From Mesostigma viride (Eukaryota > Streptophyta > Mesostigmatophyceae > Mesostigmatales > Mesostigmataceae), in the NCBI GenBank assembly GCA_009746045.1, contig RPFO01000264.1:1242214-1306213 (forward strand): a stretch of DNA of 64,000 nt, in the 5' to 3' direction. Below the pieces are notes generated by a model. It worked only from the letters and a program-made list of their open reading frames with translations. It searched no databases and was not told where the DNA came from. Position 1 is the first letter of the stretch. The number at the start of each line of letters is the position of its first letter. Made by a program: the position numbers and the translations under genes. Of this stretch, positions 271 to 57,390 are shown piece after piece.

Positions 271-282
271 AGTTGTAATACG
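271..282 (-). repeat. Remnant of E1 3' LTR (12 bp)
   Basis: AGTTGTAATACG is identical to the inner edge of the intact LTR at 7109-7120. It sits directly at the left target duplication and is followed at once by a copy of internal RT sequence. Nearly the whole 3' LTR is therefore missing while the extreme end remains. Confidence 0.75.
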
Positions 283-612
283 GAACTCCGTGTGGATGTC
301 CCTTTTCCATACAGCAGGCACCCTAACATAGAAAGGCGTCTTGCCCTCCCACTTTTCCTGTGCCACATCTGCATCACCCTCCAGAAATGCCCTTTTGAAG
401 TCTATCACCACTGAGCCATAGTCCAAGCCCTTGTTGAGAAGGCCTAGAAAGACACACAGCAGCAGCCTCCAAGGATCATGCAGCATGCCAGGGGTATACA
501 ACTCCTCAGCAGTGCACTCACCAGTACCCTTGAACTCATTCAGCACTGGCCTGACATGTGGTACCTTGACCCCGTCCACCTCCTTCATCTTGATGACAAA
601 CTTGAAGCTTGA
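282..612 (-). pseudogene. Duplicated fragment of E1 reverse-transcriptase gene
   Basis: About 330 bp here match 2546-2875 with only a few differences: two substitutions were noted (near 376 and 476) and one extra A near 606. Both copies have the same orientation. In the parent gene the segment encodes the RT region around the catalytic D765 box. The fragment lies between the E1 3' untranslated region and the 12-bp LTR end. This fits a template switch before integration, or a post-integration rearrangement that used the GGAAC microhomology at 282 and 2546. Confidence 0.85.
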
Positions 613-1471
613 ACAGATGTCTTTAATGGCCATTGCCATTCCCCCAGCCCTTTCTTTTAAGGAACTGGAAAAGAAACAGATCTGCCACAGGGAAAACCAT
701 TTCATGAGAAATGGAGAAAACCTATGGAAGTGGCATTACAGAGTACCACCAGATATTAGAAGCACACAAAATTAAATACATACAGGTTAATTCTATGAGG
801 TCTTCTCCAGGAATTAATCCCATCACCTCGGTAGAGCCTCCAGTACAATGACCTTCTGGCGGTGAGTTACATTAATCCCAGATACTAATCCCATAAAACC
901 CAGTACATATTCAATATAAGTACAATAAATCCATGACAATTAAAATACCACTTGACAAAGTAAGGCGTATTACAATAGTTTGCCTGTCATTCTCTCAACA
1001 GGGGTCTATTGGCGCCCGTCTTACGGCGCCCGTCTACTTGCCAGATGGTAAACTGCCACAGCAAACAAATGACAAAATGAAACACATAGGCAACAATTAA
1101 ATCCTGCCCTGGGGAACTAGGGAAGTCTGAACAGGCAAACACCTGAACAGGCCAGCTTGTAGAAACATAATACCAGGGAATCGAACCCCGCCCTATAAAC
1201 CCCAGAATAAAGGTTCCCAGACCATTGTGAGAGTATGTACAAATATACATTTCTTTTAAAATAGAATACATGGTCTGTAATGGACCTGTCAACCTTGTGT
1301 AGTCAACAGCATGAACCCCAGCCAAAACCTGGCTGTATCCTGATTAAAATCAGAGTGAGTGTACCATGGTCCATGAGCCTTAGTACAGACTAAAATACAG
1401 GTATTATGCCAGTCACAATGCTGACACTACCACACAATCTGCTCTCCAATGCCCTATAACCATGCACCAGC
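613..1471 (-). other. E1 3' non-coding region
   Basis: This stretch lies between the RNase H stop and the duplicated RT fragment. I found no convincing ORF on either strand. It would be the 3' untranslated region of E1. No polypurine tract can be assigned because the normal LTR junction is lost. Confidence 0.5.
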
Positions 1472-2215
1472 TTAGACAGCTTGCTGAGATGGGTCCATCA
1501 GAGACTGAAGAACCTTGTATTGCACTGCTGCCTTCTGCACTAGCTTGGTCAAAGCATCAGCAGGATTGTCAACCCCAGGGATATGCTCAATATTGGCCAA
1601 GGAGGACAACTCCTTAAGAAGGAGATAATCCAAGTCCCTACTTCTGGCCATCTGCCTGTGCACAAACTGCACCATCCCCATGGAGTCTGTTTTTAGAAGA
1701 GTGGTAACCTGAAGTGGCCAAGGAGTGTTAGAAGTCATCTGATGAAGCAACTCCTTCAGATAAAGGCTTGTGTGAATGCCTTCACAAATAGCCCTGCATT
1801 CTGCCACATCACTGCTGACAGCCACCCGTTTGTGCAGGCGACTAAACCAGCTCACCAAACTCCCCAGGCCTTCCTGTCTGAGCACAAAGAGCCCTGCAGC
1901 CCTGCCCCTGACCTTGGAGACCTGCCTGCTGTCCATTGAGCTATCCACATACAGCTCCATGCAAATGGGTTGTGATAAATCCACTGCAGACAACAGAATG
2001 CCAGATGAAGCCCTGACCTGATCAGCCACCTTGGCAGACCCTAGCTCCACCAGCATGTCATCAGGCAACCTGGCTATGACCATAAGGTCTGGCCTGGAAA
2101 TGCCTGCCACCCAAGCAACCATGCCCCTCACCATGGGACACAGTGCCTGTGTGATGGTTGGAGGAAGCTTGCTAATGAGGGTCTCTTGATAGTCATTGCC
2201 CCCCACCAGCAGCAT
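1472..2215 (-). CDS. E1 RNase H domain (copia-like)
   Basis: RNase H removes RNA from the RNA:DNA hybrid during reverse transcription. Acidic residues in the expected order are visible: the first Asp in YVDSSMDSR, Glu in SDVAECRAI, and Asp in LLKTDSMGM. The C-terminal copia-type tail VDNPADALTK follows. The frame is shifted relative to the RT ORF that ends at 2193. The two overlap by about 23 bases near a run of six C on the plus strand (about 2199-2204), so a slip there would restore one polyprotein. The E2 counterpart is at 41870-42748. No start codon context is implied; it is normally part of Pol. Confidence 0.8.
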   Translation of the reverse strand: MLLVGGNDYQETLISKLPPTITQALCPMVRGMVAWVAGISRPDLMVIARLPDDMLVELGSAKVADQVRASSGILLSAVDLSQPICMELYVDSSMDSRQVSKVRGRAAGLFVLRQEGLGSLVSWFSRLHKRVAVSSDVAECRAICEGIHTSLYLKELLHQMTSNTPWPLQVTTLLKTDSMGMVQFVHRQMARSRDLDYLLLKELSSLANIEHIPGVDNPADALTKLVQKAAVQYKVLQSLMDPSQQAV

Positions 2216-4958
2216 ACGCCACTCCCCCCTTCTTCTTCACCAGTGTGGCCTCCATGCCCACAAACAGCAGAGGCTCATTCTCCACCTGCCATTGCTCCCT
2301 ACCCAGAGGAAACTTGGACTTAATGATGGAGATCAGCTCCTTAAGCCACGACGTGGGAGCTATCAGATGTAGGTCATCCCCGTGCAGCGAAGCATACACT
2401 GGCAGGCCTTCCCATTGCCCCAGAAACAGACAGGGGTCTACAGGAGAGACCTTCAAGTTGCAATGCTCCTTCAGGAAACGGTTGAGAGTCTCCCTCCAGA
2501 TTATTGGACTTGACCTCAGGCCCTCCAGGCCCTTGAGGATTTTAAGGAACTCCGTGTGGATGTCCCTTTTCCATACAGCAGGCACCCTAACATAGAAAGG
2601 CGTCTTGCCCTCCCACTTTTCCTGTGCCACATCTGCATCACCCTCCAGAAATGCCCTCTTGAAGTCTATCACCACTGAGCCATAGTCCAAGCCCTTGTTG
2701 AGAAGGCCTAGAAAGACACACAGCAGCAGCCTCCAAGTATCATGCAGCATGCCAGGGGTATACAACTCCTCAGCAGTGCACTCACCAGTACCCTTGAACT
2801 CATTCAGCACTGGCCTGACATGTGGTACCTTGACCCCGTCCACCTCCTTCATCTTGATGACAAACTTGAGCTTGAGTAGACGTCGTGCAGGAGGCAGGTC
2901 ATTGACAGGTTCCACGCATTTCTTGGAGATCCAATCCTCCCCAGATTTAATGAGACCCAGTGTGACCTGGGGACACATAATGGGAGAGGACATGAGCTTC
3001 ACCAGGCCTTGGTAGTTGATAGGGCTGTGTCCAGCAAGTGAGTGAGGACCAATGCCCAAACTGCTTGGATGACTAGCAGCTGGCAGTATGAGGTCATCAA
3101 CCAAGGGCTCCTGCCCCTGGCACACTTGCACACGCTTAACCGTCCTGGTTACTGCACGTGATAGGTGAGTGGTCCTGAAATTAATCAGTGGGACCTGACC
3201 AGCCCCTTCCTTAGTCAGGAGAGAGGACGTGATCACTACCCCATCCTGGCATAGGAAATTCTGCCCCAGAAGAGCAGGTCCTTGATAGCCCTCCAAGACA
3301 CAAAAAGCAGTGTCCTGTCCAAGGATAGGAATGAATACCTCACCCAGTACCTTCACGTGTACCCCGCCACTGAAGTCAGACACAAACTGATAGCTGGGTT
3401 CAGACATGCTGTACCCTGCTGCAGCCCTGGTCCCAATAATGGAGACCTGAGAATTAGTGTCTACCTCTAAGGCAGTGTCCAGCCCCAGATTGCCATGCCA
3501 CCTGAGCTTGGCTACCTTGGGCTGCTTCTTGGCCCTTTGTAGAGCCCCAATCAATCCAGCCAAACTTGTCCCCCTGGGCTTGGTTAGTGCCTTGGGCTTG
3601 ACAGTTGACTCCCCAGCTGTTGACCTTGCAGCCTGTTCAACAAGTACCTCTGCAACCTGGCCAGGGCTGACAGATTCCCCTGCAACAGATGTGGTCGTTG
3701 CGTCAGTGATGTCACCTGGGACCTGAAAATCCTGCAGATCCTGTGAGCCTTGTGCCTGACTGCCCTCATTCATCAGGTTAGGCTTGACATATGACCAACT
3801 CAGCCGGTGTACATGCTTTGGTTCGTCCTCCATGCTGACCAAGCATGCGTGGCTAGCTTCATCAACCTGGGTAACCACCCCAGGACTCCAGCTACCACGT
3901 TTGCCATAAAGGCTAGGTTCCTTCCAAGCTAGGACCTTCTGACCCACTTGTGGCTCCAGCATCTTCCAACCCCGGTCCTTCTCCCTCAGCTTGGCAAAGG
4001 TGACATGTGCAGCATGTTTCCAGCCCTCCAGCACATGTGGTGGGCACAGGCCATGATATAGACCCATTGGGCTGACAGCAACTCCATCATAGTAGAAGTT
4101 AACCCTGCTGTTCAGCTGCTGCTCCACGTTCCTCAGCCATGCACTCCTGACAAGTGCAGGTGCAGACAAGGGTACCCAGTCTTCAGAGATGATCAATTTC
4201 TTGACCTCCTGGATTGCCCTCTCGATAGCACCCTGCTGCCCATGAGCCTCCCTAGGTGTAACCAGCAACTCAGGAAGGGTAGGATCACCCTTGAGATGCT
4301 GAAACTGCATGTCCACCTGGATCCTTGTGGTAGGAAACTTGGCTCTTACATTCTGCAGGGCAGCCAGCAAGTACCTGTTCTTCATAGAAGGTAAATGCTC
4401 TAGCACCTTGTATTTCGTGTACCTGTCCACGCACACCAACAGTTGCATGCCCCTGATGTGTTGGATATCACACTGCAGATCACCAATGCTCTGAGGTAGA
4501 GCTTTGGCATGTGATTTCCTGGGCTTGTTGGAGGACAACTGGCACTTACACCGTGAGGCAGCTTGCTGACACGCCTTAAGAAGGGGTGCCCTGCCCATAC
4601 GGAAGGCAAAGTTGTTTGACAGAGAAGTGGCATGCCCAAACATGTTGTGGATTCGGGCACCCAACTCCTGGTACACAGAGGAAGCAGTCCCTGGCACAGT
4701 CAGGACTGTGCTGTCAGGTTGTCCAGCATCACCATGCTGACTTCCATCCTGTTCTGACTCAGAGCCTGAGTCACCCTGCTCATGCCCAACACCTGGACCG
4801 CCAGCAGGGACCACATGCATACCACCAGAGGCCTTCACACCCCTCTGTGGTTGTACATTGGTTTCTCTCAAAATGAGAGGTCCACCCTCGTGCCCAGCAC
4901 GAGGATGCATAGGGTCAGACATACTTACAGCTGCATCAGCTGTCAAGGACGTCTTCAT
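2193..4958 (-). CDS. E1 Pol: integrase - protease - reverse transcriptase
   Basis: This 921-residue polyprotein segment has an unusual order. Integrase: H104, H109, C130, C137 and C139 form a zinc-finger-like region; the catalytic triad is D164 (CDIQHI), D216 (VDMQF) and E246 (GAIERA), with 29 residues between the last two; an SH3-like C-terminal domain spans about 338-395. Protease: DTNS at 500-503, then an ALLGQNFL motif at 562-569, after the integrase rather than before it. RT: VVIDFKRAF (D765) and HGDD at 859-862 in place of the usual Y-x-D-D. The first about 95 residues are low-complexity. The Met at 4958 is the first in frame; the real protein may be made by frameshifting from gag, whose ORF ends at 5100. 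Confidence 0.85.
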   Translation of the reverse strand: MKTSLTADAAVSMSDPMHPRAGHEGGPLILRETNVQPQRGVKASGGMHVVPAGGPGVGHEQGDSGSESEQDGSQHGDAGQPDSTVLTVPGTASSVYQELGARIHNMFGHATSLSNNFAFRMGRAPLLKACQQAASRCKCQLSSNKPRKSHAKALPQSIGDLQCDIQHIRGMQLLVCVDRYTKYKVLEHLPSMKNRYLLAALQNVRAKFPTTRIQVDMQFQHLKGDPTLPELLVTPREAHGQQGAIERAIQEVKKLIISEDWVPLSAPALVRSAWLRNVEQQLNSRVNFYYDGVAVSPMGLYHGLCPPHVLEGWKHAAHVTFAKLREKDRGWKMLEPQVGQKVLAWKEPSLYGKRGSWSPGVVTQVDEASHACLVSMEDEPKHVHRLSWSYVKPNLMNEGSQAQGSQDLQDFQVPGDITDATTTSVAGESVSPGQVAEVLVEQAARSTAGESTVKPKALTKPRGTSLAGLIGALQRAKKQPKVAKLRWHGNLGLDTALEVDTNSQVSIIGTRAAAGYSMSEPSYQFVSDFSGGVHVKVLGEVFIPILGQDTAFCVLEGYQGPALLGQNFLCQDGVVITSSLLTKEGAGQVPLINFRTTHLSRAVTRTVKRVQVCQGQEPLVDDLILPAASHPSSLGIGPHSLAGHSPINYQGLVKLMSSPIMCPQVTLGLIKSGEDWISKKCVEPVNDLPPARRLLKLKFVIKMKEVDGVKVPHVRPVLNEFKGTGECTAEELYTPGMLHDTWRLLLCVFLGLLNKGLDYGSVVIDFKRAFLEGDADVAQEKWEGKTPFYVRVPAVWKRDIHTEFLKILKGLEGLRSSPIIWRETLNRFLKEHCNLKVSPVDPCLFLGQWEGLPVYASLHGDDLHLIAPTSWLKELISIIKSKFPLGREQWQVENEPLLFVGMEATLVKKKGGVAYAAGGGQ

Positions 4959-5099
4959 AGGAACCTGTACCTCTCCAGGTGACCTGGGGCCACACTGAAC
5001 CTGGAGATCACCCTCTTGTTGCCCAGATATAAAATCTGCATTGGAGCACCTGGCCTCCCCCTTGGGTGAATTAAGGTGTGTAGGGGTTGCCTCAGACAG

Positions 5100-6214
5100 T
5101 CACTGCTCCTTGTTGTCTTCTTGCTGACTGCCCTTTGAAGGCTGGCCTGCCTGGGACTTGTTGTTGTTCTTCTTGTTGTTGTTGTTATTCTTGTTGCTGC
5201 CCTGGCCCTGGGACTTCTTGAAGCTGGGACACTCCTTCTTGATGTGCCCCCACCCCTTGCACAGGTAGCATTGTATCTTGGACTTGCCCTGGCCACTGCC
5301 CCCATTGTCAGACGCGTTGCCCTGCTTGGGCTGACCACCCACCCGCCTGAACACCGACTTGGAGTGTGACCTCCTGTCAGAATCAGGTGAATGATCTCCC
5401 TTGCGCTTGTGATGGTTGCCCCTACGCCCTCCTTGGCTTCGGTCAGCCTCAGACGTCTTGGAGCCACCCTGGGTACGCCCGCCTGCCTGGGTAGCCTTCA
5501 CTGCTGGCACTCCACCCTCAAACAGCTCCTCTGCCTCGAGAGCTTGTTTAATGATGACCTTGTAGGCCTTCAGGGTAGAGTGTGGGGCACACATGACTTT
5601 TAAGGAGCCACGTGTCGCCTTATCCAGCCCAGAAACCTTGAGCCAGTTGGTTAGGGCTATGTTATCAGCGACATTAAAGCCGTGAGCCCTGCCCTCCTCA
5701 ACCATCTTACAATAGTTGAGAAAGTTCTGGATCAGGTCCCCCTTGACCTCCCACCCTTGGTACTTGTCCTGCCAATGGATGCCCACTTCTTCCTCTGATC
5801 CTCCAGCAGCTCCTTCAGCTCAGCCACGTACAGTGCCCAGGCCTTATTGGCCTTTTTGCACTCCCTGGTTAGGTCCTTAATCTGGTCAGTACACTTGCCA
5901 AAAGTGCTACTGCCTATCCAGATTTGATAGTAATTTGTACCACCGTACAAGCTAGGGAACCCTTCCAATCCCTCCACAAACTCTTCAGCCTGCTTAGGCT
6001 TGGAGTCTGAGGTTACAGGCTGCAACTGATTGACAATTAAAAGACCCTGTGTGGTAAGATCAAAGCCATGAATAGCTTGTGCATTATTATTATTGTGAGG
6101 AAGGTTGGTAATCTCTCCGGTAAGCCCCACGTCATCTACGTGAGCGGTTCCACTACCAGCACCCCCATTATTATTCCCACTGGCTGGACCCTTGCTACGG
6201 CGTCCCTCAGCCAT
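5100..6214 (-). CDS. E1 Gag with one CCHC zinc knuckle (frameshifted)
   Basis: Two overlapping frames make one Gag. The first, 6214-5732, starts MAEGRRSKG and contains a hydrophobic capsid-like stretch (GLEGFPSLYGG...CTDQIKDLT). It is followed by 5786-5100, with IQNFLNYCKMVEEG and a zinc knuckle CYLCKGWGHIKKEC (C-x2-C-x4-H-x4-C). An Asn/Lys-rich tail follows. The frames overlap by about 55 bases, so a single indel near 5780 would rejoin them. Gag would form the particle and bind RNA. The Asn-rich tract next to a zinc knuckle recurs in E2. Confidence 0.75.
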
Positions 6215-6559
6215 CCTGCACTACCAGCTATTCAAAGAACACCTTAACGAAGCAGCAGAAAATATGTACAAAATTTTTGTGTCGCCTCTGCCGCCTGCGC
6301 CGGTGTCGCTGCCGCCCCCGCGAATTGCCGCCGAAATTCGACAAAAAAATGTCGACAAGTACTGCAGAAGAAAATTAGGCCGACTAGTAGTCAAGGCCCC
6401 TGAAGTCGCAGTACGTGTATACGAACTCACGATCCTCCATATCCAGCTCCGGACCTGCACCGGTATGAATTAAAACCGGCGTGCTCCCCGCCGCGTAAGT
6501 TGCGACGCGCCGACGCGCGACGAGGCGCAGAGGATGTGTAAAGATCGTCAATAATTCCC

Positions 6560-7088
6560 ACCCCGCGGGAATCCACTCTCGCACAGAGGCGAGAAATGCC
6601 ACCAGGTTAATTAAAACCTGGCGCTCACGACTGCGTACGCCGCGAGTGAGCAGCGATAGCAGCGCGAGATCCTGAAACAAATTTGTTGACACCGCCGGCG
6701 CGCCCCCCGTGCGAGCGATGCCCAGTTTTGCAGGTTTCTCTGGTAACCGGTGAGTGAAGAGAGGACGTTGTCCAACTCCTCAATGGCAGTCGTGACTTCG
6801 GTCACCGACCGCAAACCTCCCCGCACCTGGACCGTAAATGTCGATAAAATGTTGCGATCTGGTCCAACATGCGCGAGCCGGCACCAGTGCTGGCAAATCG
6901 GGGTCCTCGGGGTTATCCCCGAGCAATGCGTGAGCTGCACGCTGCTGACGATGAAGCTCGTCGAGCGAAACTGTAACTTCGTCGAGCAATTGTTGCCACG
7001 ACGGCACAGTTGGTCTTGACGAAGAACCAGCCGGCGGAGCGGCTATTTCCTCATCGTCCGGAATCCGAAATTCTTCCGAATTTGGCAT
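6560..7088 (-). pseudogene. E1 pre-gag ORF (function unknown, frameshifted)
   Basis: An ORF starts at 7088 (MPNSEEFRIPDDEE), about 20 bases inside the 5' LTR. Its N-terminal part is acidic with a heptad-like helix (LLDEVTVSLDELHRQQRA). The first frame ends at 6780, while a second frame (6940-6611) gives another helix-like segment (TTAIEELDNVLSSLTGY), so at least one frameshift is present. I recognise no family. It lies where a leader or extra gag-like protein would be. The stretch 6215-6559 to its left shows no supported ORF. Confidence 0.45.
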
Positions 7089-7108
7089 CTTTTTACGAGT
7101 GTAATACG

Positions 7109-7737
7109 AGTTGTAATACGAGTTGTGAGGGTAAGAATGCCACGAATTCCGCCATGGTTCTTGCAGGAAGTTGCCTTTATTAATAATCAGGAAACACAGA
7201 CGTAAGTCACGTCACTTCCAAGACTGCACGCAGCACAGACGACAGGGTCGCAGTGCCAAGAGAACGTGCACGCAAGAACTAGCGTCCCGGTGTGACCAAG
7301 TCACTCATATAGCTTACTAGGGACGCGTCCAAGTATTCAGCTGCACTGTCACAGCTGAACTGTCAATCAATTGATTACACAGACTCTGGCACGCCTTTGG
7401 CGCGCAGATCTATCAATTGTCCATACGGCAAGTCCTGTGGACCTATCCGTACACTAGTCAGCATCAATTGTCTCATAGGTCCTGGCGCGCTACAGTGCGC
7501 CTACCTATCAATTGACCATCAAGTCCTGTACAAGTCCTGTCAACGTCCTGCGGACTATCAAAGTGACACTTGTACATCCTGTGTCCGTACGCGCCCACAG
7601 TGGCGCGCCGGGTACTGTCGGCACAGCCTAGGAAACGTCATAACTTTTACGTTCCTTAACCAAATGAGGCGTTCAAGGTGCCGTTGGAAAGAGCGTAACA
7701 ATCTCTATCCATCTAACGTAAATCCTTTACGTTAACT
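7109..7737 (-). repeat. E1 5' LTR (629 bp)
   Basis: On the plus strand it begins AGTTGTAATACGAGTTG and ends TTACGTTAACT, next to the CCTGC target duplication. The inner edge matches the 12-bp LTR remnant at 271-282. The termini are AGTT...AACT, the same as E2. No TGG-type primer-binding site is evident on the inner side. Confidence 0.75.
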
Positions 7738-9162
7738 CCTGCCACCGACGTACCTGCACCTCGGCGCGAGTCCGCCGTCCCAGCGGCCGCGCCCGTCGCC
7801 GCCGCGTCCGAGCCGCCCACCACGTCAGCGCCGCCCGCGCGGGGTTTCTTCAGCGACCCGGGCGGTCTTCCCAGGCTTTGGGAGGGCGGTCCTCCGCAGA
7901 GGATCCCGGTGCCTGACTGGAGCTTGGACGGTAACCAGTCGTATGCCGGATTGCCTGTCCCCACGGGCCCTATTTTCAACATGTGGCCTGGTGGTGCTCC
8001 GCCCCCAGAGACCGGCGCGCCAGCTGCGGAGGCGGGTCCGTCGCGACCCCCTGCGGCATCGGGTCCGACGCGGCCCCCGGTTGTACCGGCGTCGTCTGCG
8101 TCTGTGCCGGTTCCTACCCCTTCGTCGGCCCCTGTTCCTTCGGCCCCGCGGTCTTTGGCTGCGGTTGTTCGGTCCAGTGGCTCTGACCCTCGCGCCACCC
8201 GCGCTGCCGATTCCCTTCGGGAGTTGTCAGAGGGCGATCGGGATCGGGCCCCTTCTGTGGTGCATGCGACTCCGGAGTCGCGCGACACGCCTGTCTTTGG
8301 GTACGGTATGTCTGCGCTCGCCTGCCGCCAGTGTGACCTGCCGCGCGTCTCCGCCGAGCTTGCCATTTCGCCCATGTCCTACGGGTTCTCCCAGGTGTGT
8401 CGGGCGCCGCGGGACCGTGGCCTACCAGTTGAGACTGATCGGCCTCCTTTCGATATGGTTATTTTAGCTGATCCGGTGTTCCAGGGTGAGATCCTGGTTC
8501 GGCGCGTCCTGTATCGCTGGGCTAGGCGCCACAATGACTTGGACACCTACGGCGGGTTCCAGTGGGCTTACCCTCCGCCTCTGGGCATTATGGCCTCAGA
8601 TGCCCTTACGGTAGAGTTTCCTGCGGTGCCGGGTGCCACGTACAGCACGGTCCTTCAGCCCATCCTAGAGTGGGATGCCCGTCGTCCAGCGCCCATCCCG
8701 GGCCAGGGTTTGGACTCTCGTGGTCATCCTCCTCCCCGGGCTAGCGACTACCTCGAGACGTTCGGGTCGCGACAGTGTGCCCGTCGGTGGCGCTCCCGTG
8801 AGATTCGGCATATCCGGTTGTGGCCGTCCAACGTGGAGCCCTTGGTAGATCTGTTTTTCCCGACGGGTATGCGCCCTCGGATCCGGTACCATCGCCTGCT
8901 CCTGCGGGCTCTCTGCCTGATCGCGGTAGAGCCTTTCCTACGCCTCTTTGCCTGTGGTTTCCTGGACTGGGCCAGGGGCCAAGTCGTTCTTACGCAGCAT
9001 AGGTATTACTGGGCCTTCCTGGGTCTTTTTCCTGACGGCGTGTGGGCCGATGTTTTCCTCACTGTAGATAGGCACGACAATGCTGAGGATGTGTCCCACT
9101 ACCAGGCGTACCTGGATGTCCTGCTGGCCTCCCGTGGTACTTACCAGACGGATGGCCATTAG
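7738..9162 (+). CDS. X2 accessory ORF of G1, main part
   Basis: After the E1 insertion the X2 frame continues to a stop at 9162. It has an Ala/Pro-rich linker, then a compact region that starts near YGMSALACRQCDLPR and contains PLGIMASDALTVEF, SRQCARRWRSRE, LWPSNVEPLVDLFFPTG and HRYYWAFLGLFPDG. X2 of G2 (47548-45783) is nearly identical in protein, and many of the DNA differences fall at third codon positions, which suggests selection on the protein. There is no transmembrane segment, protease, RT or integrase motif. It sits where some gypsy elements carry an env-like or additional ORF. Its function is unknown. Confidence 0.8.
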   Translation, partial: PATDVPAPRRESAVPAAAPVAAASEPPTTSAPPARGFFSDPGGLPRLWEGGPPQRIPVPDWSLDGNQSYAGLPVPTGPIFNMWPGGAPPPETGAPAAEAGPSRPPAASGPTRPPVVPASSASVPVPTPSSAPVPSAPRSLAAVVRSSGSDPRATRAADSLRELSEGDRDRAPSVVHATPESRDTPVFGYGMSALACRQCDLPRVSAELAISPMSYGFSQVCRAPRDRGLPVETDRPPFDMVILADPVFQGEILVRRVLYRWARRHNDLDTYGGFQWAYPPPLGIMASDALTVEFPAVPGATYSTVLQPILEWDARRPAPIPGQGLDSRGHPPPRASDYLETFGSRQCARRWRSREIRHIRLWPSNVEPLVDLFFPTGMRPRIRYHRLLLRALCLIAVEPFLRLFACGFLDWARGQVVLTQHRYYWAFLGLFPDGVWADVFLTVDRHDNAEDVSHYQAYLDVLLASRGTYQTDGH

Positions 9163-22304: not shown

Positions 22305-22790
22305 TCATATGCCCATCATCTTGTCCCTGAGCATCACAAAACGTGGCTCAGGAAGTGCCTTGGTAAGCATGTCGGCGATCATGTCCACCCCAGGGAGGTG
22401 AATCACCTGGATGGTGCCATCGGACACCTTCTCGCGGATGTAGTGATACTTCACATCGATGTGTTTCGTCCTCTTCGGATGGACGGGGTCACGCGTCAGC
22501 GCAACCGCACCAGTGACAGTTGTCAGAGTACACTGGAATTGGCCCAGGAGTCAGATCGCCCAGCTCCCTTGCGATGGTGATCAGGGGGACCACCTGCTGC
22601 GTGACCCCCCCCAGGGCCATGTACTCGGCCTCGCAGCTGGACAGGGCCACGGTCTGCTGCTTGCGGCTGTTCCACTCCACAGCAGCACCGCGGTACATGA
22701 CCACGTTCCCCGTGACCGACCGTCGGTCCACAGGGTCGTTAGCCCAGTCCGCGTCGGAGTAGGCCAGCATCCCCCCCTCACCCTGATAGA
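22305..22790 (-). pseudogene. C1 RNase H
   Basis: Copia-type RNase H: YSDADWANDPVDRRS, then SSCEAEYMAL, then a stretch ending ADMLTKALPEPR and a stop at 22305. The frame is broken near 22500 (VYSDN followed by out-of-frame sequence) and again at about 22785, where it should join RT. It closely resembles the same region of C2. Confidence 0.8.
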
Positions 22791-24329: not shown

Positions 24330-24336
24330 ATTACAA

Positions 24337-27009: not shown

Positions 27010-27011
27010 GT

Positions 27012-35784: not shown

Positions 35785-36242
35785 AGTTAGATGAGATGCT
35801 TAGGCTGACACACGGATTTCCGGCCTGCGCGCCGCGTATTGCCTACCGCGGCTGAGCGGGACACCTCAGTACTGTACGGCAGGGCGTACGGTACTGAGGC
35901 GTCATGTGGACTGACGTGCAGTTAGTGCCAGACTGTTCCTAGGTGCTAGATCGACCCGCCAGGTCCGGTGTAGCCGGGCCTGACGGGCCGAGTCTTAGCT
36001 GGTGGCTAGTGACGTGGTCGCATGGCATTGCAGTGTCCAGATGTCCACTGGCAGGTGCTGCAGTGAGCACTGCCATAGGCATATAGGCGTAGCACTGGGG
36101 AGTGCCGCAGCACCCGAGTTTGCCCAGACGTTCCATTCTGAGCCCTCAAGCTTACACTACTCTCATTGTATTATTGCTAATACAACCATCATTCCATTTC
36201 AGCTTTCGGCAGTTGTCCTTCGTCTTTAGACGCGTTCCAACT
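35785..36242 (+). repeat. E2 5' LTR
   Basis: 458 bp, paired with 43808-44267. The termini AGTT...AACT depart from TG...CA. The primer-binding site starts at 36243. Confidence 0.88.
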
Positions 36243-36284
36243 TGGACTGAAAAGCCTTTTTATTTTTTCCGAAAAACAAAAAAC

Positions 36285-37818
36285 ATGGCTTCCAACAACG
36301 TCAAGGACAACAAGAAGGCGGGGAAGGCGCCTGCCAGGCGCACATCACCCCGACTCTCGCCGGAGGGCTCGCCCTCCGCCAACGATGCACGAGGGTGACG
36401 CCTAGCGTCACCTTCCGCACGGTGATCGCCGATCACCCCAGGCGTCGGACCCCGCAGGTGGGGACCGGCGCCCGGGGGATGGCGAGCGGACGCCCGTTTG
36501 CCACTGGCGGCTCGTCCGCCATGGCACCCGGGGGGCAGGACCCCCGGGCACGTGATACCCCCATCGCAGGTGATGGGGGTCGTGAACGAAGCGACTCCTC
36601 GGAAGAGGACGGGGAGGTGCAGCCTGTGAGGCCGCGGCCTTCGCTAGAGATTTCTTCCCAGACGCCGGCGACGTCTGGTAATCTTTCGGTGGGCCGACAG
36701 ATGGCCATCCTGGACATTGACCGATATGGGGCGCATGTTCCGCCGCCTGTCGAGTTCGGGCGCTACCGTACTTCTTCCCATCGGGGAAGATGACATCCCA
36801 GCGTTCATCTCGGTGAACGGCTGGATCATTCGTCAGCGTTTTCAGCTGACCGCCGATGAGCCGATGCATGCGATCGATGTTCATCGGACGCACACGATGC
36901 TCGAGCGTCGTCTGCGGATGCAGTTCAACTGATCCAGGTGGCGTTTGGATGTGGTGCTTTGCCAACAGGCCGAGGAGCAATCCAGGCACTGTGGATCAGT
37001 GGGCGTCCAGGCAGCGTCAGAGAGAGGCGCTGCGCGTGGTCGCCAAGCAGGAGATCGCGCTGACTCCGTTGCCGCCGTGGCCCCAAGTCACGCCAGTTGG
37101 CTGGGGCCCGGAGGCGTGAGGCGGCTGCGATGCCGCCTGCGACGGAGCGCGGGGCGGCAGACGCCCCTACCACGCCCATGGGTGGTGAACCACCCAGGAC
37201 CCTCTGGCAGGTCAGAGGGTCCAACCTCAGCAGCGGGCTCCCCCGCCCAGCGTGGGGGGCCAGGTGGCTGAGGAGGCCACCGGGGTCGCAGGGACCCCGG
37301 CGGCGACGCCAGCTCCCGGGGTCGCAGGGACCCCGGCAGCGACGCCGGCGCCTCCGGCGCTGGCGGGGGATGCAGCCCCCATGGAGGGTGTCACGGGCAC
37401 CTCCAGCGGCTCTGGGGGGCAGGCCCCCTCTAGCCGCACCAAGGACAAGGCCCTGGCAGGGCCGGAGGGGCCTCAGGGTCCCACCTTGGCAGGGCAGCAG
37501 CCGGCACGGCTGGAAGGCGACCTGGAAGGTCGGGACTTCATCACCCTGGGTGATGAGGCCGTGTGGCGTGCCATACAGACAGCCACAGCCTCCTTCCGTG
37601 GGCTGGCCGACCGGAGCCAGCAGATGCATGTTGCGGAGGCGGGCAGCCTGGTGTGTGCGATTATCACGCACATCCTGGGCTTGCCCAACCTCCACGGGAC
37701 ACGCAGGGTGTGTGACGACTTGCTGCCTGCCCTGCAGGCCCTCCTCTCAGGAGGAGGGTGCAGGGTAACAGGGTTCGCCTGGTGCGACTCCTGGAGCTCC
37801 TGCACAATGCCATCCTGA
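36285..37818 (+). pseudogene. E2 pre-gag ORF region (function unknown, frameshifted)
   Basis: An ATG at 36285 opens MASNNVKDNKKAGKAPARR, which ends at 36398. Further open segments follow in shifting frames: Pro/Arg-rich with ERSDSSEEDGEVQ to 36793; IPAFISVNGWIIRQRF to 36932; WASRQRQREALRVVAKQE to 37119; and a 188-codon segment 37252-37818 with FITLGDEAVWRAIQTATASF and AIITHILGLPNLHG. Together they look like one long decayed protein upstream of gag, as in E1, but I see no sequence similarity to the E1 pre-gag ORF. Confidence 0.45.
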
Positions 37819-38117
37819 AGGGGCGGGTAGGTGGTTGCCTACCTGGCTGCATCATGACTTACTAACCCTACTGACGATGAAGTGTCCCTCTCTCCCACCT
37901 TCCATGATTGGGAGGAGGCCCGCAGCAGGAGGCGGGAAGTGACACACACTCACACCCCCACCCAGCCCACCCCTATGTTGCCTAACCCTCCTACACAGCC
38001 CATGTTTGCCCTCCTGCTCAGCTCACTCAAGTAGCACTTCCCTCTCAGCATGTCTCTCCTGTGAATGCTGCAGCAGCAACACCATCTTCTCCCTCTCCCC
38101 CTGCATCCCCCTCTAGG

Positions 38118-38964
38118 TGCCCACTTACAATGAAAACCGTCCTGTGGATAGGATTAATGTCAGGGGGCTGCCTGAGGGGTATACTAGGGAGCAGGGGAAT
38201 CATGCACTTCTCTCTCTCAGCTGGCTAGGGAGGAACTGAATGTCAAGAATTGGTTTGGATCTCTCATGCAGGGGGATTTTTACCATCAGTCCTCCTCTCA
38301 GATTCAGAATCTCATCCTTGTCTTCCAGCGTAGGTATCCCAAGTGGCAGGACACGCAGGCTAGGGCAGTTTGGGAGGCTTTCATGAAGGAGCTAACTGAC
38401 CTCCTCTCCACCCCCTCATCTGTGGACATATATGGGGCATTCAGGTGGGTAGAGGAATACAGGGTCACATCAGTGGACTATGTGGCTGAGACAAAGAAAT
38501 ATGAGCTAGCCATCAAAGCACGTCCTGATGTCCAGCAGCTAGATCACAAGTTCTTGCTGCGTTCCTTCCTTGAGAAACTCAAACTTGACAAAAACACCTA
38601 CGCTATGCTTGCAACAGGAATGGCAAAGTACTGGGAGGACATGAAGGAGGCATTGGATTATATCAAGCTGGCCTTGGCTCCCCTTAGCCAGGGGGCCATG
38701 GGCACCTCTGTAAAGAGGGTCAGGGGGGAGAGAGGGAGGAGGAGGATAGGGAGAGGGAAGACAGGAGCAAGAGACCTGTCACCATGGCAGAAGTGAAGTC
38801 CCTGCTGGGACAAATGTTTAAGGGCAAGGGCAAGGGCAAGGGCAAGGGCAAGGGCAAGGGCAGGGGCTGGGGCAAGGGCAAGGGTAAGGGGCAGTCTCCC
38901 TCCAAGGGGGGCAGCTCCAGCAACAACAACAACAGCAACAACAACAACACAACAACAACAAAAC

Positions 38965-38995
<31 letters not shown>

Positions 38996-39351
38996 AACAA
39001 CAACAACAACAAGCAGGACAAGGAGGACAAGTCTTCTCAGCGGTGCACCCGCTGTGGCATGAAGTACCACCTGCGGCCCACCTGCCGCAAGAACGTGGAC
39101 GAGCTGGGGCATTTGGACGTCCTGTGCCACAAGTGCCACGGGCCGCCCCACGGTGACCCCAAGGACTGCAAGCGGCCTCCTTACGGCAAGAAGTGTGAGT
39201 CTCCCTCTCATGCTGGCTTGAGTGTGCCTGCTTCACCTCTTTCATCTGCATGCCCCACTGTCAGAGCAGTGAGCAGTTCTGGAAAGGTGCTACAGCTGGT
39301 TTCAGAAGATTATGTCTCTAAACCAACCTTCACATCTATGGTTCCCAAGGT
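38118..39351 (+). pseudogene. E2 Gag with two zinc knuckles (frameshifted)
   Basis: A capsid-like region runs from about 38118 (PVDRINVRGLPEGYT) and, after a shift near 38222, through YPKWQDTQARAVWEAFMKEL and FLEKLKLDKNTYAMLATG to 38796. A Gly/Lys repeat (GGGCAA units, 38822-38888) and a CAA/AAC-rich tract (38920-39013) follow. Two zinc knuckles are then in frame: CTRCGMKYHLRPTC (39044-39085) and CHKCHGPPHGDPKDC (39124-39168). The Asn-rich tract next to a CCHC knuckle is shared with E1. The frame ends at 39436; pol opens in the -1 frame. Confidence 0.75.
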
Positions 39352-40836
39352 GTGCAGAGTGTCCCCTCAGAGGATGCTCATATCAGTTTTCAGGAGCTTG
39401 CTTTGCAGTTGCATTTCCTTTATGGGCATGAAGTGAGTGCAGAGGTGGTGGCAGCAGCAATAGGGGGGGCAGCACTCAGACGTGCATGCCAGGTGGTCAG
39501 ATCCCACTGCCAGCATTGTCAGTTCAATGCACCCAAACCCCCTAAGTGGCATGTAGCTACCCCACCTAAGTGCAAGGGCAGGGTGGTAGGAGATGTCTTT
39601 CATATCAAAGGACAATCTTACTTGGCACTTAAAGATGCATGGTCAAGGTACACAACCATTGAACCATTACCTGGAATGGACAAGACACAGTTGCTCAGGG
39701 CTCTCTTGATTGCTCAGGCCAGGTACTACCCTGTGGAGGCATTGTTACTGGATCAGCAGTTCACGTGTCTTGCCAATGAACCAGGGTGTGAGGCTATTGA
39801 TCTGGCTGGGCTAGAAGATCATGAGAGGCAAGGCATTATTGAAAGGGCCATCAGGTCCATTAAAACCCTTGTAGCCAAGGAAGATGGCAATCTGCTGGCT
39901 GACAGTGGGTCATATGCTGACAGAGCTCTGTGGTCCACCAGGTTGTGCCAAGTCCTCAACAGGAGGCCACTCATGAAAACCCCACAAGGGGTGATCATTA
40001 CACCAGATGGATTGCATGCAGGCATTTATCCACCTGAGGTACTAGCCCTATACAACGCACAGCGAGCACAGACAGCTAGCAGGTTAGCTGTCAAGGATGC
40101 AAAGCATCCACGTCCCACCTTCAGAGAAGGGGATCAGGTCCTATTCTACAAGGAGTCGGGACTAGGCAAGGTGGGTACCTGGCATGGGCCAGCCACCATC
40201 CTAAAGTTTAACACCACTGGCAGGACAGTGTTAGTTAAACACAATGACACGGGAAAGATTCACAGGTGTTCACCTCACAGGATGAAATTGTATTTTCCAA
40301 CTGTGTCAGACGTGGCAGAGGAGGAAGAGCTGTTGGCCGACAGCCCTGTACAGTTGCCTGGCATCCCAGCGTTGCCCAGTGAGTGGTTGTTTGGAACACC
40401 CACTGGTGAGTGTGAGAGCCACACCCACTGTGACACCCAGGTCACCCTTGATGATTGTAGGCAGTCACTGCAGGATTGGCCCCCTGCAGCAGAGGGTCAC
40501 ATTGGCAAAACAGGTGATCAGCAACCTATCACCTCTTCAAGTGTGAACATAGCTCAGCCACTAGCTGCACCTTCCAAACGCAGCCTAGCAGACGCTGTTC
40601 GCATTTTACAAGCAGCTCATAGAGCTAAAGCTCAAACTGCTGCAGGATCAGCTAAGGTGGGGAAGGTTGGGCAGAATGACAATAGCCCATTTATGGTTGC
40701 AGTGGACACACAAGCCCAGGTCAGCATTATCAGTGCCCTGGCTGTGCCCCATATGCCTTTGGAACCTTCACCCTGGCACCATGTGGCTGATTTCTCAGGG
40801 CAGTCATCCCTCAAGGTACAGGTCAGGTCATGTTGA
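39352..40836 (+). CDS. E2 integrase followed by protease
   Basis: The 494-codon frame starts inside the integrase. Zinc-finger residues are H21, H26, C46, C53 and C56. Catalytic residues are D81 (GDVFHI), D134 (LLDQQF) and E164 (GIIERA), with 29 residues between D134 and E164, exactly as in E1. An SH3-like C-terminal domain (GDQVLFYKESG...WHGPATIL) is at about 260-315. After a linker comes a protease-like active site VDTQAQVSII (D452), where the normal Gly is Gln. The frame then stops at 40836; the second half of the protease (LEGYKGNALLGDPFL) continues in another frame. Confidence 0.85.
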   Translation: MQSVPSEDAHISFQELALQLHFLYGHEVSAEVVAAAIGGAALRRACQVVRSHCQHCQFNAPKPPKWHVATPPKCKGRVVGDVFHIKGQSYLALKDAWSRYTTIEPLPGMDKTQLLRALLIAQARYYPVEALLLDQQFTCLANEPGCEAIDLAGLEDHERQGIIERAIRSIKTLVAKEDGNLLADSGSYADRALWSTRLCQVLNRRPLMKTPQGVIITPDGLHAGIYPPEVLALYNAQRAQTASRLAVKDAKHPRPTFREGDQVLFYKESGLGKVGTWHGPATILKFNTTGRTVLVKHNDTGKIHRCSPHRMKLYFPTVSDVAEEEELLADSPVQLPGIPALPSEWLFGTPTGECESHTHCDTQVTLDDCRQSLQDWPPAAEGHIGKTGDQQPITSSSVNIAQPLAAPSKRSLADAVRILQAAHRAKAQTAAGSAKVGKVGQNDNSPFMVAVDTQAQVSIISALAVPHMPLEPSPWHHVADFSGQSSLKVQVRSC

Positions 40837-41903
40837 CTATACTTGGTATCCCCACTCCTTTTCAGGTATTGGAAGGTTATAAAGGGAATGCTTTGTTGGG
40901 GGATCCTTTTCTCTGTTACCCTGGTGTCATTATCTCCAGTGATAGACTATCCATCCAGGACATGGGTGGTGTTGATCTGAATCATTTCAAAATTTCTCTT
41001 GAAAAACTTCTTAACACCAACATTGCTTCTGTAAAATTTGCTACACCCAAGTATGCCCCAGGGCAAGAACCCTGTGTGGCAGACTTGGTTCACAACCAAA
41101 AACTTCATCCCACTCATTTGGATTGGGCAAGCATGATGTGGCTAAAATGTCTCCTCTTTCTTATGAACAGATAGAGCAAGACTGTCGCACACACATAGGA
41201 TTCCTAAAATGGGTGGAGGCCTTTAACAAGGCCAGGGAAGAATGGGTAGTGCCAGATCCTCTTAGCCCTCTCATACTCCACCTGTCACACCTATTGACAA
41301 AAAGCCTGCAGGGTGCAAGCACTTGCGCCTGAAGTTTGTGTGTAAACATAAGCCAGCAGCAGATGGGTCAGTCATTTTCATGCTAGACCTTGTGTGACAG
41401 AGTTCAAGGGCACCACTGATCTGACAGAGGCAGAGTTGTACACGCCAGGCATTCAGCAAACATCCCTAAAAATCTTGCTGTCTGTCTTTGTGGGTCATCT
41501 CAATGATGGGGATGACTATGTATGTAAGGCTACAGACATTAAAAGGGCTTTCCTGAAAGGCTCACCTGAGATAGCACAACAAGTGTGGCATGGTCAGGTG
41601 TATGTAGTCTCCACTCCCAGAGTTTGGGCAAAACACATCCCTCAGCAGTACCTGAAAGCTAACATAGGTGTTGAAGGGCTGCAATCAGCTCCTCGAATTT
41701 TCAGGATGTCAGCTCAGGCTGTGTTTGAAAAGCTAGGGGCTAGATATGATGACATAGACCCTTGCTTCTTTGTGGTCCCACACCCTCATGGCATACTCAC
41801 CTTTGTGTGGCATGGGGATGATCAGCTGATTGCTGGGCCAAGGCGTGCTGTGATGATTTTATTCAACAAGTGTCACAGCATTTTGAGATTGGCAAGCAAG
41901 TAG
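40830..41903 (+). pseudogene. E2 protease end and reverse transcriptase (frameshifted)
   Basis: Three frames cover this region. 40830-41174 has the protease C-terminal motif ALLGDPFLCYPGVII. 41123-41332 is an RT N-terminal piece. 41394-41903 is the RT core with LYTPGIQQTSLK, ATDIKRAFLKG (catalytic Asp), GVEGLQSAPRIFR (counterpart of the copia YGLKQAPR box) and VWHGDDQLIAGP. The HGDD box equals that of E1. At least three indels have occurred, so no intact RT is made. Confidence 0.8.
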
Positions 41904-42748
41904 AGCTGGGCACCACTGCCATAAAATTTTGTGGCACAATGTTACAACTCCAGCAGCATCAAAACCAGTGGGTGTGTGCACTTTACTCTCCCAATGATTA
42001 CATGCACAGCTGCTTGGAGGTTTTGCAAACAAAAATCAAACCTGGAGCCTGTCCTACCATTAGAGGCAAGCTGGGGTGGTTGTGCTCAACGTGTGCACCT
42101 CACCTGGCTGTGGTTAGCAGAGTTGATGATGATGTCTTGATGCAAGTAGGTCACAAAGCCATCACCAAAACTCTCCAGGAAGGCCCTCCCCTTATCTTGC
42201 ACTCCTTGGATCTCCACAAAACCATTCACATCCAAGCTATGATGGATAGTTCCATGGAGTCCAGGCAGATTACCAAGTTGCAGGCAAGGGAGTCAGGCTT
42301 GTATTTTGTGCAGAATGATGATGCACCCTTGTCTCTCATTTCATGGTACAGCCGGTTGCATAGACGCAAGGCTGTCAGCAGCAATGCTGCTGAGTGCAGG
42401 GCAGTGGTGTCAGCAGTGCTTCATGCCAGGTACTTGAATCATGTGCTGGTTTGGTTGCAGATGCAAGCAGGCAGCAATGCTGGGGTGGTGGCACACTTGC
42501 TCACTGACAGTCAGTCAGTCCTCAGTTTCCTTGCTAACCCCTATGCTGTGCACACTGATCTTGACTGGGTGGTCCTTAAACAGGAGTCCACCTACTGGGA
42601 GTCCACCCGTCACGTGGAGGACAAACACAACGCTGCTGATGCACTCACTAAAGTGCCTCAGCAGGCAGCTGAACAATATCAGCTGTTGTACCACTTGATG
42701 AACCCCTATGGCAAGCAGGCAACCCTGCCCCATAGGGGGGACGCCTAG
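41870..42748 (+). CDS. E2 RNase H
   Basis: This frame overlaps RT by about 34 bases. It carries the thumb and connection region (FEIGKQVELGTTAIKFCG) and RNase H: MMDSSMESRQ (first Asp), NAAECRAVVSA (Glu), LLTDSQSVLS (Asp), and the tail KHNAADALTKVPQQ. It ends at 42748. It is the part of E2 pol that remains open, and it aligns with the E1 RNase H. Confidence 0.8.
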   Translation: MSQHFEIGKQVELGTTAIKFCGTMLQLQQHQNQWVCALYSPNDYMHSCLEVLQTKIKPGACPTIRGKLGWLCSTCAPHLAVVSRVDDDVLMQVGHKAITKTLQEGPPLILHSLDLHKTIHIQAMMDSSMESRQITKLQARESGLYFVQNDDAPLSLISWYSRLHRRKAVSSNAAECRAVVSAVLHARYLNHVLVWLQMQAGSNAGVVAHLLTDSQSVLSFLANPYAVHTDLDWVVLKQESTYWESTRHVEDKHNAADALTKVPQQAAEQYQLLYHLMNPYGKQATLPHRGDA

Positions 42749-43807
42749 CAGGGTCCTGTTCACCAGGGCCGCCTAGGTAACCCAGTACCCCTTGGGCAGG
42801 TCCAAGGGGTAGGTTGTGGCTTCCAGCAAGGGGGGTTGGTTGGAGTCTGTTTTCATACATCTGCGTGCCCTATGCCAATAAAATCTGTTTTGATTTTTTC
42901 AACACCATGGAATTTCGTTATGCACACCTTCATAGGTGGGCATGGGATGTATCTCACACTCTTTATCCATAGGGCGTATGCCTTGGTGGATTGGCCTTGA
43001 GCTCAGTGGCTCAGGTGCCCCCATTCAAGTGGAGGGTCAAAGCTCCCTTGACAGGTGGTTACCCAGGACCCCAGTTCACTGTGGATATCCTGGGCCACCT
43101 GGCCTCACTGTTCAGTGGCAGTAAAGGCATGGGTGCTGTCATGTTGTCTAGTACAACGTGCTCAGCACAGGTGCAGGATGAAATATTCCTGTCACCTGTC
43201 ACCAGGACTTCAGCCACCATGTGCAGGGCAGGGGTGGCTGGTCTCACACGTTGTGCAGGTGCAACGTGGCCAGGTCCAGGATGTCATAGTCCTGTCACCT
43301 GTCACTAGGACTTCAGCCCCCTCTGTGCAGGGCAGGGGTGGCTGGTCCTCACATGTTGTGCAGGTACAACATGGACAGTGCAGGGTGCAATAAACCTGTC
43401 CTGTCACTCCTCAGGTTGCAGGTAACCTGAGCTCAGTTGACCCAGCCTGGCTGGGTATTTTTCTCTGAGTGGGCGATGATGATGGAACAACATGGAACCT
43501 CTTAAACGGTTACCTTGGCATTTTTACAATGGCTCTCTTGGCTGGTGATGCACTCCCTGGATAGGCAGACAGGCATAGCTATCTCCCTTGTGAGCTCGCG
43601 AGGAGGAGGAACTCCCCGGGCATGTTGAGCTAAACGTGATGCCATCACAAGTATTGCACGAGTTCTGGGGCCCATCTTTTTCAGTCCAGATGTTGCAGTA
43701 TGGGTGTCAGTTGCTCAGCACCTCAGTCAGCTTGGAGTCAGTCTCCTAGCTGGGCAGGGTCAGGCTTGAAGTCGCTAGCCTTCAACCTGAAAGGAAAACA
43801 TAATGGG
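42749..43807 (+). other. E2 3' non-coding region
   Basis: AATAAA motifs lie near 42882 and 43391. Two diverged tandem copies of a roughly 100-bp unit with GTCACCTGTCAC and GCAGGGCAGGGGTGGCTGGT lie at about 43190-43385. A polypurine stretch (43790-43807) abuts the LTR. No convincing ORF. Confidence 0.6.
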
Positions 43808-44267
43808 AGTTAGATGAGATGCTTAGGCTGACACACGGATTTCCGGCCTGCGCGCCGCGTATTGCCTACCGCGGCTGAGCGGGACACCTCAGTACTGTAC
43901 GGCAGGGTGTACGGTACTGAGGTGTCATGTGGACTGATGTGCGGTTAGTGCCAGACTGTTCCTAGGTGCTAGCTCGACCCGCCAGGTCCGGTGTAGCCGG
44001 GCCTGACGGGCCGAGTCTTAGCTGGTGCTAGTGACGTGGTCGCATGGCATTGCAGTGTACAGTTGTCCACTGGCAGGTGCTGCAGTAGCACCGCCATAGG
44101 CATATAGGCGTAGCACTGGGGAGTGCCGCAGCACCCGAGTTTGCCCAGACGTTCCATTCTGAGCCCTCAAGCTTACACTACTCTCATTGTATTATTGCTA
44201 ATACAACCATCATTCCATTTCAGCTTTCGGCAGAACTTTGTCCTTCGACTTTAGACGCGTTCCAACT
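43808..44267 (+). repeat. E2 3' LTR
   Basis: 460 bp, paired with 35785-36242, ending TTCCAACT before the GTATC duplication. Confidence 0.88.
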
Positions 44268-48992: not shown

Positions 48993-48995
48993 CTA

Positions 48996-52234: not shown

Positions 52235-52239
52235 GCCTC

Positions 52240-57388: not shown

Positions 57389-57390
57389 GA

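What the first reader, a model, noticed from the sequence alone, without database searches (positions are those of the whole stretch)
271..7737. E1: LTR element with integrase first, then protease, RT and RNase H
In the minus-strand pol the ordered domains are integrase (H104/H109/C130/C137, D164, D216, E246), protease (DTNS at 500, ALLG at 562), RT (D765, HGDD at 859) and RNase H. Known orders are PR-INT-RT-RH (Ty1/copia), PR-RT-RH-INT (Ty3/gypsy) and PR-RT-RH-INT (Bel/Pao). A protease between integrase and RT changes how the polyprotein would be cut. E2 shows the same order independently, so it is not a local rearrangement.
Basis: partly seen in the sequence, partly recalled or inferred. Interest (0 to 1): 0.9.

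Follow-up and report, generated by a model that had tools for sequence, protein, structure and literature searches.

The report
Retroelement with integrase before protease
Two families of jumping genetic elements in what is likely a green alga's genome carry their integrase first, then a likely protease, then reverse transcriptase and RNase H, an order that none of the standard families has, so their proteins would be cut apart in a different way.

Summary
The order integrase - protease-like domain - RT - RNase H occurs in two families, E1 and E2, 34% identical in pol. It is no local rearrangement: 49 E1 and 85 E2 near-identical hits were scored (lower bounds), 29 of 49 E1 hits keep a pol frame of 1207-1209 aa, and one E2 copy holds gag-INT-PR-RT-RH in a single 1507-aa frame. 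The integrase is supported by profile; RT and RNase H are copia-type. Scans found no protease upstream of the integrase. The domain between INT and RT is the best conserved part of pol (48% against 26-37%) and has a retropepsin layout, but its triad reads DTN/DTQ, not DTG; family and PDB matches are weak (E 0.05-0.1, none for some queries), and two AlphaFold models were too poor to decide. Order confirmed; protease identity likely, not proven. The only close protein relatives found carry Mesostigma names, and no paper seen describes the order. New variant of a known kind.

The parts
7738..7742 (-). 5-bp target-site duplication GCAGG, 5' side of E1
   Evidence: repeated at 266-270
7121..7737 (-). 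E1 5' LTR (617 bp, AGTTAAC...CACAACT; here followed by an extra 12-bp repeat to 7109)
6384..7088 (-). remnant of ORF0, frame-broken here (236 aa and open in 5 of 10 fetched copies)
5100..6214 (-). gag with CCHC zinc knuckle, in two frames here (5732-6214 and 5100-5819); 372-373 codons and open in 4 of 10 fetched copies
5100..5102 (-). in-frame TGA between gag and pol (CAG TGA CTG), candidate read-through stop
2193..5099 (-). E1 pol, open from the TGA to a frameshift between RT and RNase H (P0001 from its first ATG, 4958)
3774..4667 (-). integrase: zinc ligands H104, H109, and Cys among 130/137/139; D164, D216, E246 (29 residues between second D and E); SH3-like C-terminus by eye
3204..3476 (-). 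PR-like domain: VDTNSQVSII at 499-508, ALLGQNFL at 562-569; best conserved segment between E1 and E2 (43/89)
2244..2876 (-). reverse transcriptase of copia type (RVT_2); D765, HGDD 859
1475..2008 (-). RNase H of copia type, after the frameshift
279..621 (-). RT fragment of a related copy that stands where the 3' LTR should be
271..282 (-). last 12 bp of an E1 LTR end, followed by TSD GCAGG (266-270)
35785..44267 (+). E2, second family with the same domain order; LTRs about 35785-36250 and 43807-44267
39385..40371 (+). E2 integrase (HFLYGH, CQHC, D-D-E)
40684..41000 (+). E2 PR-like domain (VDTQAQVSII ... ALLGDPFL), frame-broken in this copy, open in others
41015..42745 (+). E2 RT and RNase H (frame-broken in this copy)

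Best explanation
E1 and E2 are two families of Ty1/copia-related LTR retrotransposons whose pol reads integrase, then a likely aspartic protease, then reverse transcriptase and RNase H, and the protease would cut the integrase free on its N-terminal side and the reverse transcriptase on its C-terminal side. Shown: the order, the frames, the lower bounds on copy number, LTRs, 5-bp target duplications (E1), copia-type RT and RNase H, an integrase by profile, and no protease found upstream by motif and Pfam scans. Inferred: the 495-585 domain is a retropepsin-like enzyme that works as a dimer with Asp500, although the third residue of its triad is Asn (E1) or Gln (E2) instead of Gly. In E1 pol is likely made by read-through of the single in-frame TGA after gag; in E2 gag and pol are one frame. 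The order most simply arose when an integrase was inserted between gag and the protease, one slot upstream of its place in Ty1/copia (between protease and RT).
For: Motifs at the stated places. One frame in many copies: 29 of 49 E1 hits at 1207-1209 aa; 6 of 85 E2 hits lie in open frames of 1500 aa or more, one read in full with gag, INT, PR, RT and RH (1507 aa); INT+PR in one frame in 24 of 30 E2 loci, 2 of them reaching the RT motif inside the short fetched stretch. Integrase: a profile of three families hits 98 PDB sequences up to E 10, best E 9.3e-4; the 60 shown are named integrase or retroviral Pol. RT: RVT_2 E 3.5e-6 (E1, below cut-off) and 2.1e-9 (E2, above cut-off); the E1+E2 RT and RH profiles hit the window's copia elements (RT 2.1e-9 and 8.2e-7; RH 3.3e-4, and 3.5e-4 for a stretch beside the second copia) and not its gypsy element in the 12 rows shown. 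PR: 48% identity E1/E2 against 26-37% elsewhere in pol; E2 segment to gag-asp_proteas over 6-90 of 92 positions, E 0.069 and 0.11; 9 of 10 PDB hits of the E1 segment, the best 8 among them, are 203-aa tethered retroviral-type proteases (three named HIV-1), E 0.047 at best. All pattern matches read VDTNS (20, in 19 partly overlapping E1 loci) or VDTQA (30, in 30 E2 loci), and VDTQA also in a Mesvir1 gene model, P0005. Upstream: no D[ST]G in ORF0 or gag of E1, in ORF0 of E2 or upstream of INT in P0004, and no Pfam protease there apart from one chance-level entry named below. LTR pairs 98.9-100% alike and 5-bp TSDs in 7 of 10 copies.
Against: The D[ST]G triad, nearly invariant in active retropepsins (recalled), is not met. 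Profile matches are not significant alone: no Pfam hit for the E1 segment, for the trimmed E2 core or for P0005; the E2 segment has no PDB hit and the E1+E2 profile reaches only E 0.64 against retroviral protease; the E1 PDB matches cover the LLG half and not the Asp (query 64-116); the reversed E1 segment reached E 0.087 against unrelated PDB chains. NCBIfam gave nothing for the segments. Both AlphaFold models are poor (mean pLDDT 33.7 and 40.6), and the structure rows shown hold no aspartic protease, though some proteases of other folds. The third family (P0002) could not be read at the PR, because the genome search stopped answering. E2 has DSG at 558 and DTG at 673 of P0004, inside the integrase and without a following LLG motif. 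The only protease name upstream is a Pfam entry for a vacuolar protease transmembrane domain at E 1.5 in the Asn-rich stretch of P0004. No read-through signal stood out downstream of the TGA (z 0.80).
Confidence: 0.7

Rival explanations
1. The domain between INT and RT is a retropepsin-derived or other beta domain without protease activity, and gag-pol is cut by a host protease or works uncut.
For: The Gly of the triad is Asn or Gln in both families; family and PDB matches are weak or absent and the models inconclusive.
Against: Asp-Thr and the LLG motif are kept in both families, and this is the most conserved part of pol; the scans found no other protease candidate in either element.
Confidence: 0.22
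2. A true, very diverged protease lies upstream of the integrase (in ORF0 or gag), and the order is the ordinary copia one with an extra domain.
For: ORF0 and gag have no Pfam match that tells their function, apart from the zinc knuckle in E1 gag (E 0.0052, below cut-off). LLG-like words occur in both ORF0s (ALLGDN in E1, HILGLP in E2), without D[ST]G.
Against: No D[ST]G in E1 ORF0, E1 gag, E2 ORF0 or P0004 upstream of its integrase; a DSG at pol residue 110 of E1 sits in a polar stretch without a following LLG. In E2 only 73 residues lie between the last Cys of the knuckle region (322) and the first integrase His (395) of P0004.
Confidence: 0.06
3. The order is a local rearrangement or an assembly error.
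For: The window copy is frame-broken and lost its 3' LTR.
Against: At least 49 and 85 near-identical hits on many contigs, uninterrupted frames, TSDs, and Mesvir1 gene models P0002 (integrase, closer to E1) and P0005 (97% to E2; integrase C-terminal part through PR) from another gene set.
Confidence: 0.02

Closest known systems
Ty1/copia (Pseudoviridae)
   Same: RVT_2-type RT, copia-type RNase H at the C-terminus, integrase upstream of RT, 5-bp TSD in E1
   Different: Protease-like domain between INT and RT instead of upstream of INT; no Pol_BBD hit; E1 LTR ends AGTT...AACT, not TG...CA; very diverged integrase with 29 residues between the second D and E (35 usual, recalled)
Gmr1 (Ty3/gypsy with copia-like integrase position)
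   Same: Shows that the integrase position can move (PMC2774666, passages)
   Different: Gypsy RT, and its order as recalled is PR-INT-RT-RH; E1/E2 have copia-type RT and the PR-like domain after INT
Ty3/gypsy and retroviruses
   Same: The integrase profile matches retroviral integrases in the PDB (the PDB is rich in these); the C-terminus (E2 WHGPATI) resembles their GPY/F module (recalled); gag-TGA-pol resembles gammaretroviral read-through (recalled)
   Different: Order PR-RT-RH-INT and RVT_1-type RT in those
Retropepsins (clan AA; gag-asp_proteas PF13975)
   Same: V-D-T-x-[SA]-Q, then LLG-x-x-F about 60 residues on; one domain of about 90 residues
   Different: Third triad residue Asn or Gln instead of Gly; profile scores below cut-off

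Membership tests
Ty1/copia | RVT_2-type reverse transcriptase | tested here: met
   E2 37.8 bits against cut-off 31.6; E1 27.2 bits, E 3.5e-6, below cut-off; RT profile hits the window's copia elements
Ty1/copia | domain order GAG-PR-INT-RT-RH | tested here: not met
   order INT-PR-RT-RH in E1 and E2; definition in PMC6317226 (passages)
Ty1/copia | copia-type protease (Pol_BBD) upstream of integrase | tested here: not met
   no such hit listed up to E 10 in ORF0, gag or pol (HMMER filters drop most weak hits), while the window's two ordinary copia elements hit it
Ty1/copia | 5-bp target-site duplication | tested here: met
   7 of 10 fetched E1 copies and the window copy; E2 not tested
Ty3/gypsy and retroviruses | RT-RH upstream of INT, RVT_1-type RT | tested here: not met
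   no RVT_1 hit listed; INT precedes RT
Bel/Pao | order PR-RT-RH-INT | tested here: not met
   order as in PMC12440569 (passages)
Gmr1 | gypsy-type RT with copia-like order | tested here: not met
   RT is of copia type
Retropepsin (clan AA) | D[ST]G active-site triad | tested here: not met
   DTN in E1, DTQ in E2
Retropepsin (clan AA) | hydrophobic-hydrophobic-Gly motif about 60 residues after the Asp | tested here: met
   ALLGQN, ALLGDP, 62 residues after the Asp
Retropepsin (clan AA) | profile match above curated cut-off | tested here: inconclusive
   E2 14.2 and 13.6 bits against 28.2 for gag-asp_proteas; none for E1
Retropepsin (clan AA) | retropepsin fold | tested here: inconclusive
   AlphaFold pLDDT 33.7 and 40.6 with two sequences each
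Retropepsin (clan AA) | proteolytic activity | not testable with these tools
   needs an assay

The most novel reading that the evidence does not exclude
A separate lineage of LTR retrotransposons, so far seen only in Mesostigma, in which an integrase was captured one slot upstream of the protease, giving gag-INT-PR-RT-RH, and whose protease runs on a DT[NQ] active site instead of DTG.
Probability: 0.4. Interest if true: 0.8.

Novelty: new variant of a known kind. Interest (0 to 1): 0.62.

Why it matters
Pol domain order is used to define the LTR superfamilies, and at least one large survey removed elements with domains in an unexpected order as likely mispredictions (PMC6317226, passages seen), so such elements can be missed by design. 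A further order in two abundant families makes the question of how integrase joined reverse transcriptase testable, and the DTN/DTQ triad offers a natural test of whether the active-site glycine is needed.

Tried and rejected

More families: the three protein searches gave P0002, nothing, and P0005 plus one distant copia-type RT, P0006 at E 1.3e-3. Viral-contig scans gave no relative; two scans with the window's gypsy and copia, meant to fetch reference proteases, gave none. NCBIfam showed nothing for the four PR segments given; PHROGs only one family of unknown function at E 0.18-0.32 for the two E1 segments. PDB searches with the whole E1 pol gave only unrelated chains at E 1.4 or worse; with the E1+E2 pol profile one integrase at E 0.051.

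Controls: one reversed and four shuffled strings of the E2 segment and the reversed E1 segment had no Pfam hit (0 of 6). The reversed E1 segment did hit unrelated PDB chains at E 0.087, so E near 0.05 means little alone. A two-part motif pattern, written after seeing the motifs and from a PROSITE pattern recalled, occurred in 2 of 5000 shuffles of E1 pol and 0 of 5000 of P0004; the short word VDTx[AS]QVSII in 0 of 2000 each.

RNA structure after the TGA: not better than shuffles. Literature: nine searches of a library of open-licence PMC papers; in the listings, abstract starts and passages that I saw, no paper describes this order.
Full report
What is there. The window lies in a 440-Mb genome of 2243 contigs. 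It is likely Mesostigma viride: the two close protein relatives carry Mesvir1 names, and the published NIES-296 assembly is 441.8 Mb in 2363 scaffolds (PMC6947507, passages). E1 occupies 271-7737 on the minus strand, flanked by GCAGG on both sides. The flanking DNA matches a related repeat at 45679-47477 on the other strand where E1 is absent: the unaligned gap is about 265 bases on both sides once E1 is left out (inverted pairs I2-I4), which agrees with an insertion. The window copy has lost its 3' LTR: the internal region runs to about 601, then comes a 343-bp RT fragment (279-621), then the last 12 bp of an LTR end. Its ORF0, gag and RT/RNase H junction are frame-broken.

Anatomy from other natural copies. 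In ten fetched copies the LTR is 617 bp, AGTTAAC...CACAACT, with small changes in a 12-bp repeat at its end; LTR pairs are 98.9-100% identical (one pair seen only in part, one is a tandem arrangement), and a 5-bp TSD was found in 7 of 10 (one of the other three runs off the locus). Between the LTRs lie an ORF0 (236 aa, open in 5 of 10), gag with a CCHC knuckle (372-373 codons, open in 4 of 10), a single in-frame TGA and pol. The TGA was read in 10 of 10 fetched copies, in the window and in 8 of 8 further loci; three of those 8 overlap copies already counted, so 16 distinct copies. Among 49 E1 hits scored in the genome, 29 have a pol frame of 1207-1209 aa, 17 of 967-968 aa (cut near the RT/RH junction, as in the window) and 3 of 936-957 aa. 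The tool scores only the best candidates, so 49 is a lower bound and leans towards good copies.

Domain order. In P0001 and P0003 the order is integrase, PR-like domain, RT, RNase H. E2 (window 35785-44267, plus strand) repeats it: L050 holds gag, INT, PR-like, RT and RH in one 1507-aa frame, and 6 of 85 scored E2 hits lie in open frames of 1500 aa or more (only this one was read through its whole length). Of 30 fetched E2 loci 24 have INT and PR in one frame, and 2 of these reach the RT motif (flanks of 1500 bases limit this). E1 and E2 pol are 34% identical, so the order most likely predates their split.

Integrase. Single sequences give weak rve matches (E 0.006-0.06), but a profile of E1, E2 and P0002 hits 98 PDB sequences up to E 10, best E 9.3e-4, and the 60 shown are named integrase or retroviral Pol. 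The His, Cys and D-D-E residues are invariant in the three families, with 29 residues between the second D and the E in E1 and E2, where 35 is usual (recalled). The window's copia and gypsy integrases are not among the 12 rows shown for this profile.

RT and RNase H. RVT_2 is the only RT family listed (E1 E 3.5e-6, below cut-off; E2 E 2.1e-9, above). The E1+E2 profiles find the window's ordinary copia elements, not its gypsy element, in the 12 rows shown. So RT-RH is copia-related but remote.

The PR-like domain. Residues 495-585 are the most conserved part of pol (43/89 identical; other parts 26-37%). They read (L/V)-(E/A)-V-D-T-(N/Q)-(S/A)-Q-V-S-I-I, a glycine-containing stretch, and ALLG-x-x-F 62 residues after the Asp. 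The E2 segment matches gag-asp_proteas over 6-90 of its 92 positions (E 0.069; 0.11). Nine of the 10 PDB hits of the E1 segment, the best 8 among them, are tethered retroviral-type proteases, three named HIV-1 (E 0.047 at best); they cover the LLG half, not the Asp. In the E1+E2 profile, which scores less (E 0.64), the LLG motif lies on the NIIGRN motif of these chains. Against this: no Pfam hit for the E1 segment, the trimmed cores or P0005, no PDB hit for E2, reversed E1 at E 0.087 with unrelated chains, and failed structure models. What speaks for a protease is the agreement of motif, spacing, conservation and clan of the weak hits, and the absence of another candidate. What speaks against is the missing Gly in both families. 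I put a retropepsin-like fold at about 0.8 and activity at about 0.65 (judgement).

No protease found upstream. ORF0 and gag of E1, ORF0 of E2, and the part of P0004 upstream of its integrase lack D[ST]G. Pfam lists no protease there except a vacuolar-protease transmembrane entry at E 1.5 in an Asn-rich stretch of P0004, which I take as chance. The E1 DSG at pol residue 110 is followed by no LLG; E2 has DSG and DTG inside its integrase, also without LLG. In P0004 the knuckle region (to Cys322) and the first integrase His (395) are 73 residues apart.

How it likely works. E1 makes Gag and, by likely read-through of TGA, Gag-INT-PR-RT-RH; E2 makes one polyprotein. PR would dimerise in the particle and cut on both sides of itself. 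Compared with copia, INT must be freed from Gag rather than from PR at its N-terminus, and PR could stay joined to RT. This is inference.

Known background. [quoted passage not shown] that survey removed elements with unexpected order as likely mispredictions (PMC6317226, passages). Gmr1 is a gypsy lineage with copia-like integrase position (PMC2774666, passages). Troyka keeps the gypsy order (PMC12440569, passages). I also saw passages of PMC3036077 and PMC2836005; those passages do not describe the order. Nine searches showed no paper with INT-PR-RT in what I saw of them.

Verdict. The order is real and, as far as these searches reach, undescribed. By the membership test it cannot be filed as Ty1/copia, because the order and the protease type were tested and not met, though its RT-RH and TSD are copia-like; nor can the domain be filed as a retropepsin, because the triad was tested and not met, though it likely works like one. 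New variant of a known kind; interest 0.62.

Noticed in passing
5100-5102 (minus): Single in-frame TGA (CAG TGA CTG) between gag and pol of E1 in all 16 distinct copies read; candidate stop-codon read-through, without a notable downstream RNA fold.
   Followed up: partly
279-621 and 271-282: 3' LTR of the window's E1 replaced by an RT-gene fragment plus the last 12 bp of an LTR, with the TSD intact; could be a template switch during reverse transcription or a later deletion.
   Followed up: partly
L050:6276-8381 (minus): E2 has a long ORF0 (702-codon frame) ahead of gag without Pfam match; E1 has a 236-aa ORF0 in the same place.
   Followed up: partly
48186-59944: A likely gypsy element is split by a copia element whose two LTR stretches (52240-52539 and 57408-57707) are identical, a nested insertion.
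   Followed up: no
24329-27788: A copia PR-INT piece lies between two 786-bp inverted arms (98% complementary), each with a 155-bp tandem duplication; the RT part lies just outside at 22584-24341.
   Followed up: no
7717-9162 and 45783-47456: Two related long ORFs of a repeat family (89-91% over about 1.35 kb, opposite strands); E1 is inserted next to the first.
   Followed up: no
62660-63985 (plus): ORF that looks like a C5 DNA methyltransferase from its LELFAGIGG start (recalled motif, not searched).
   Followed up: no
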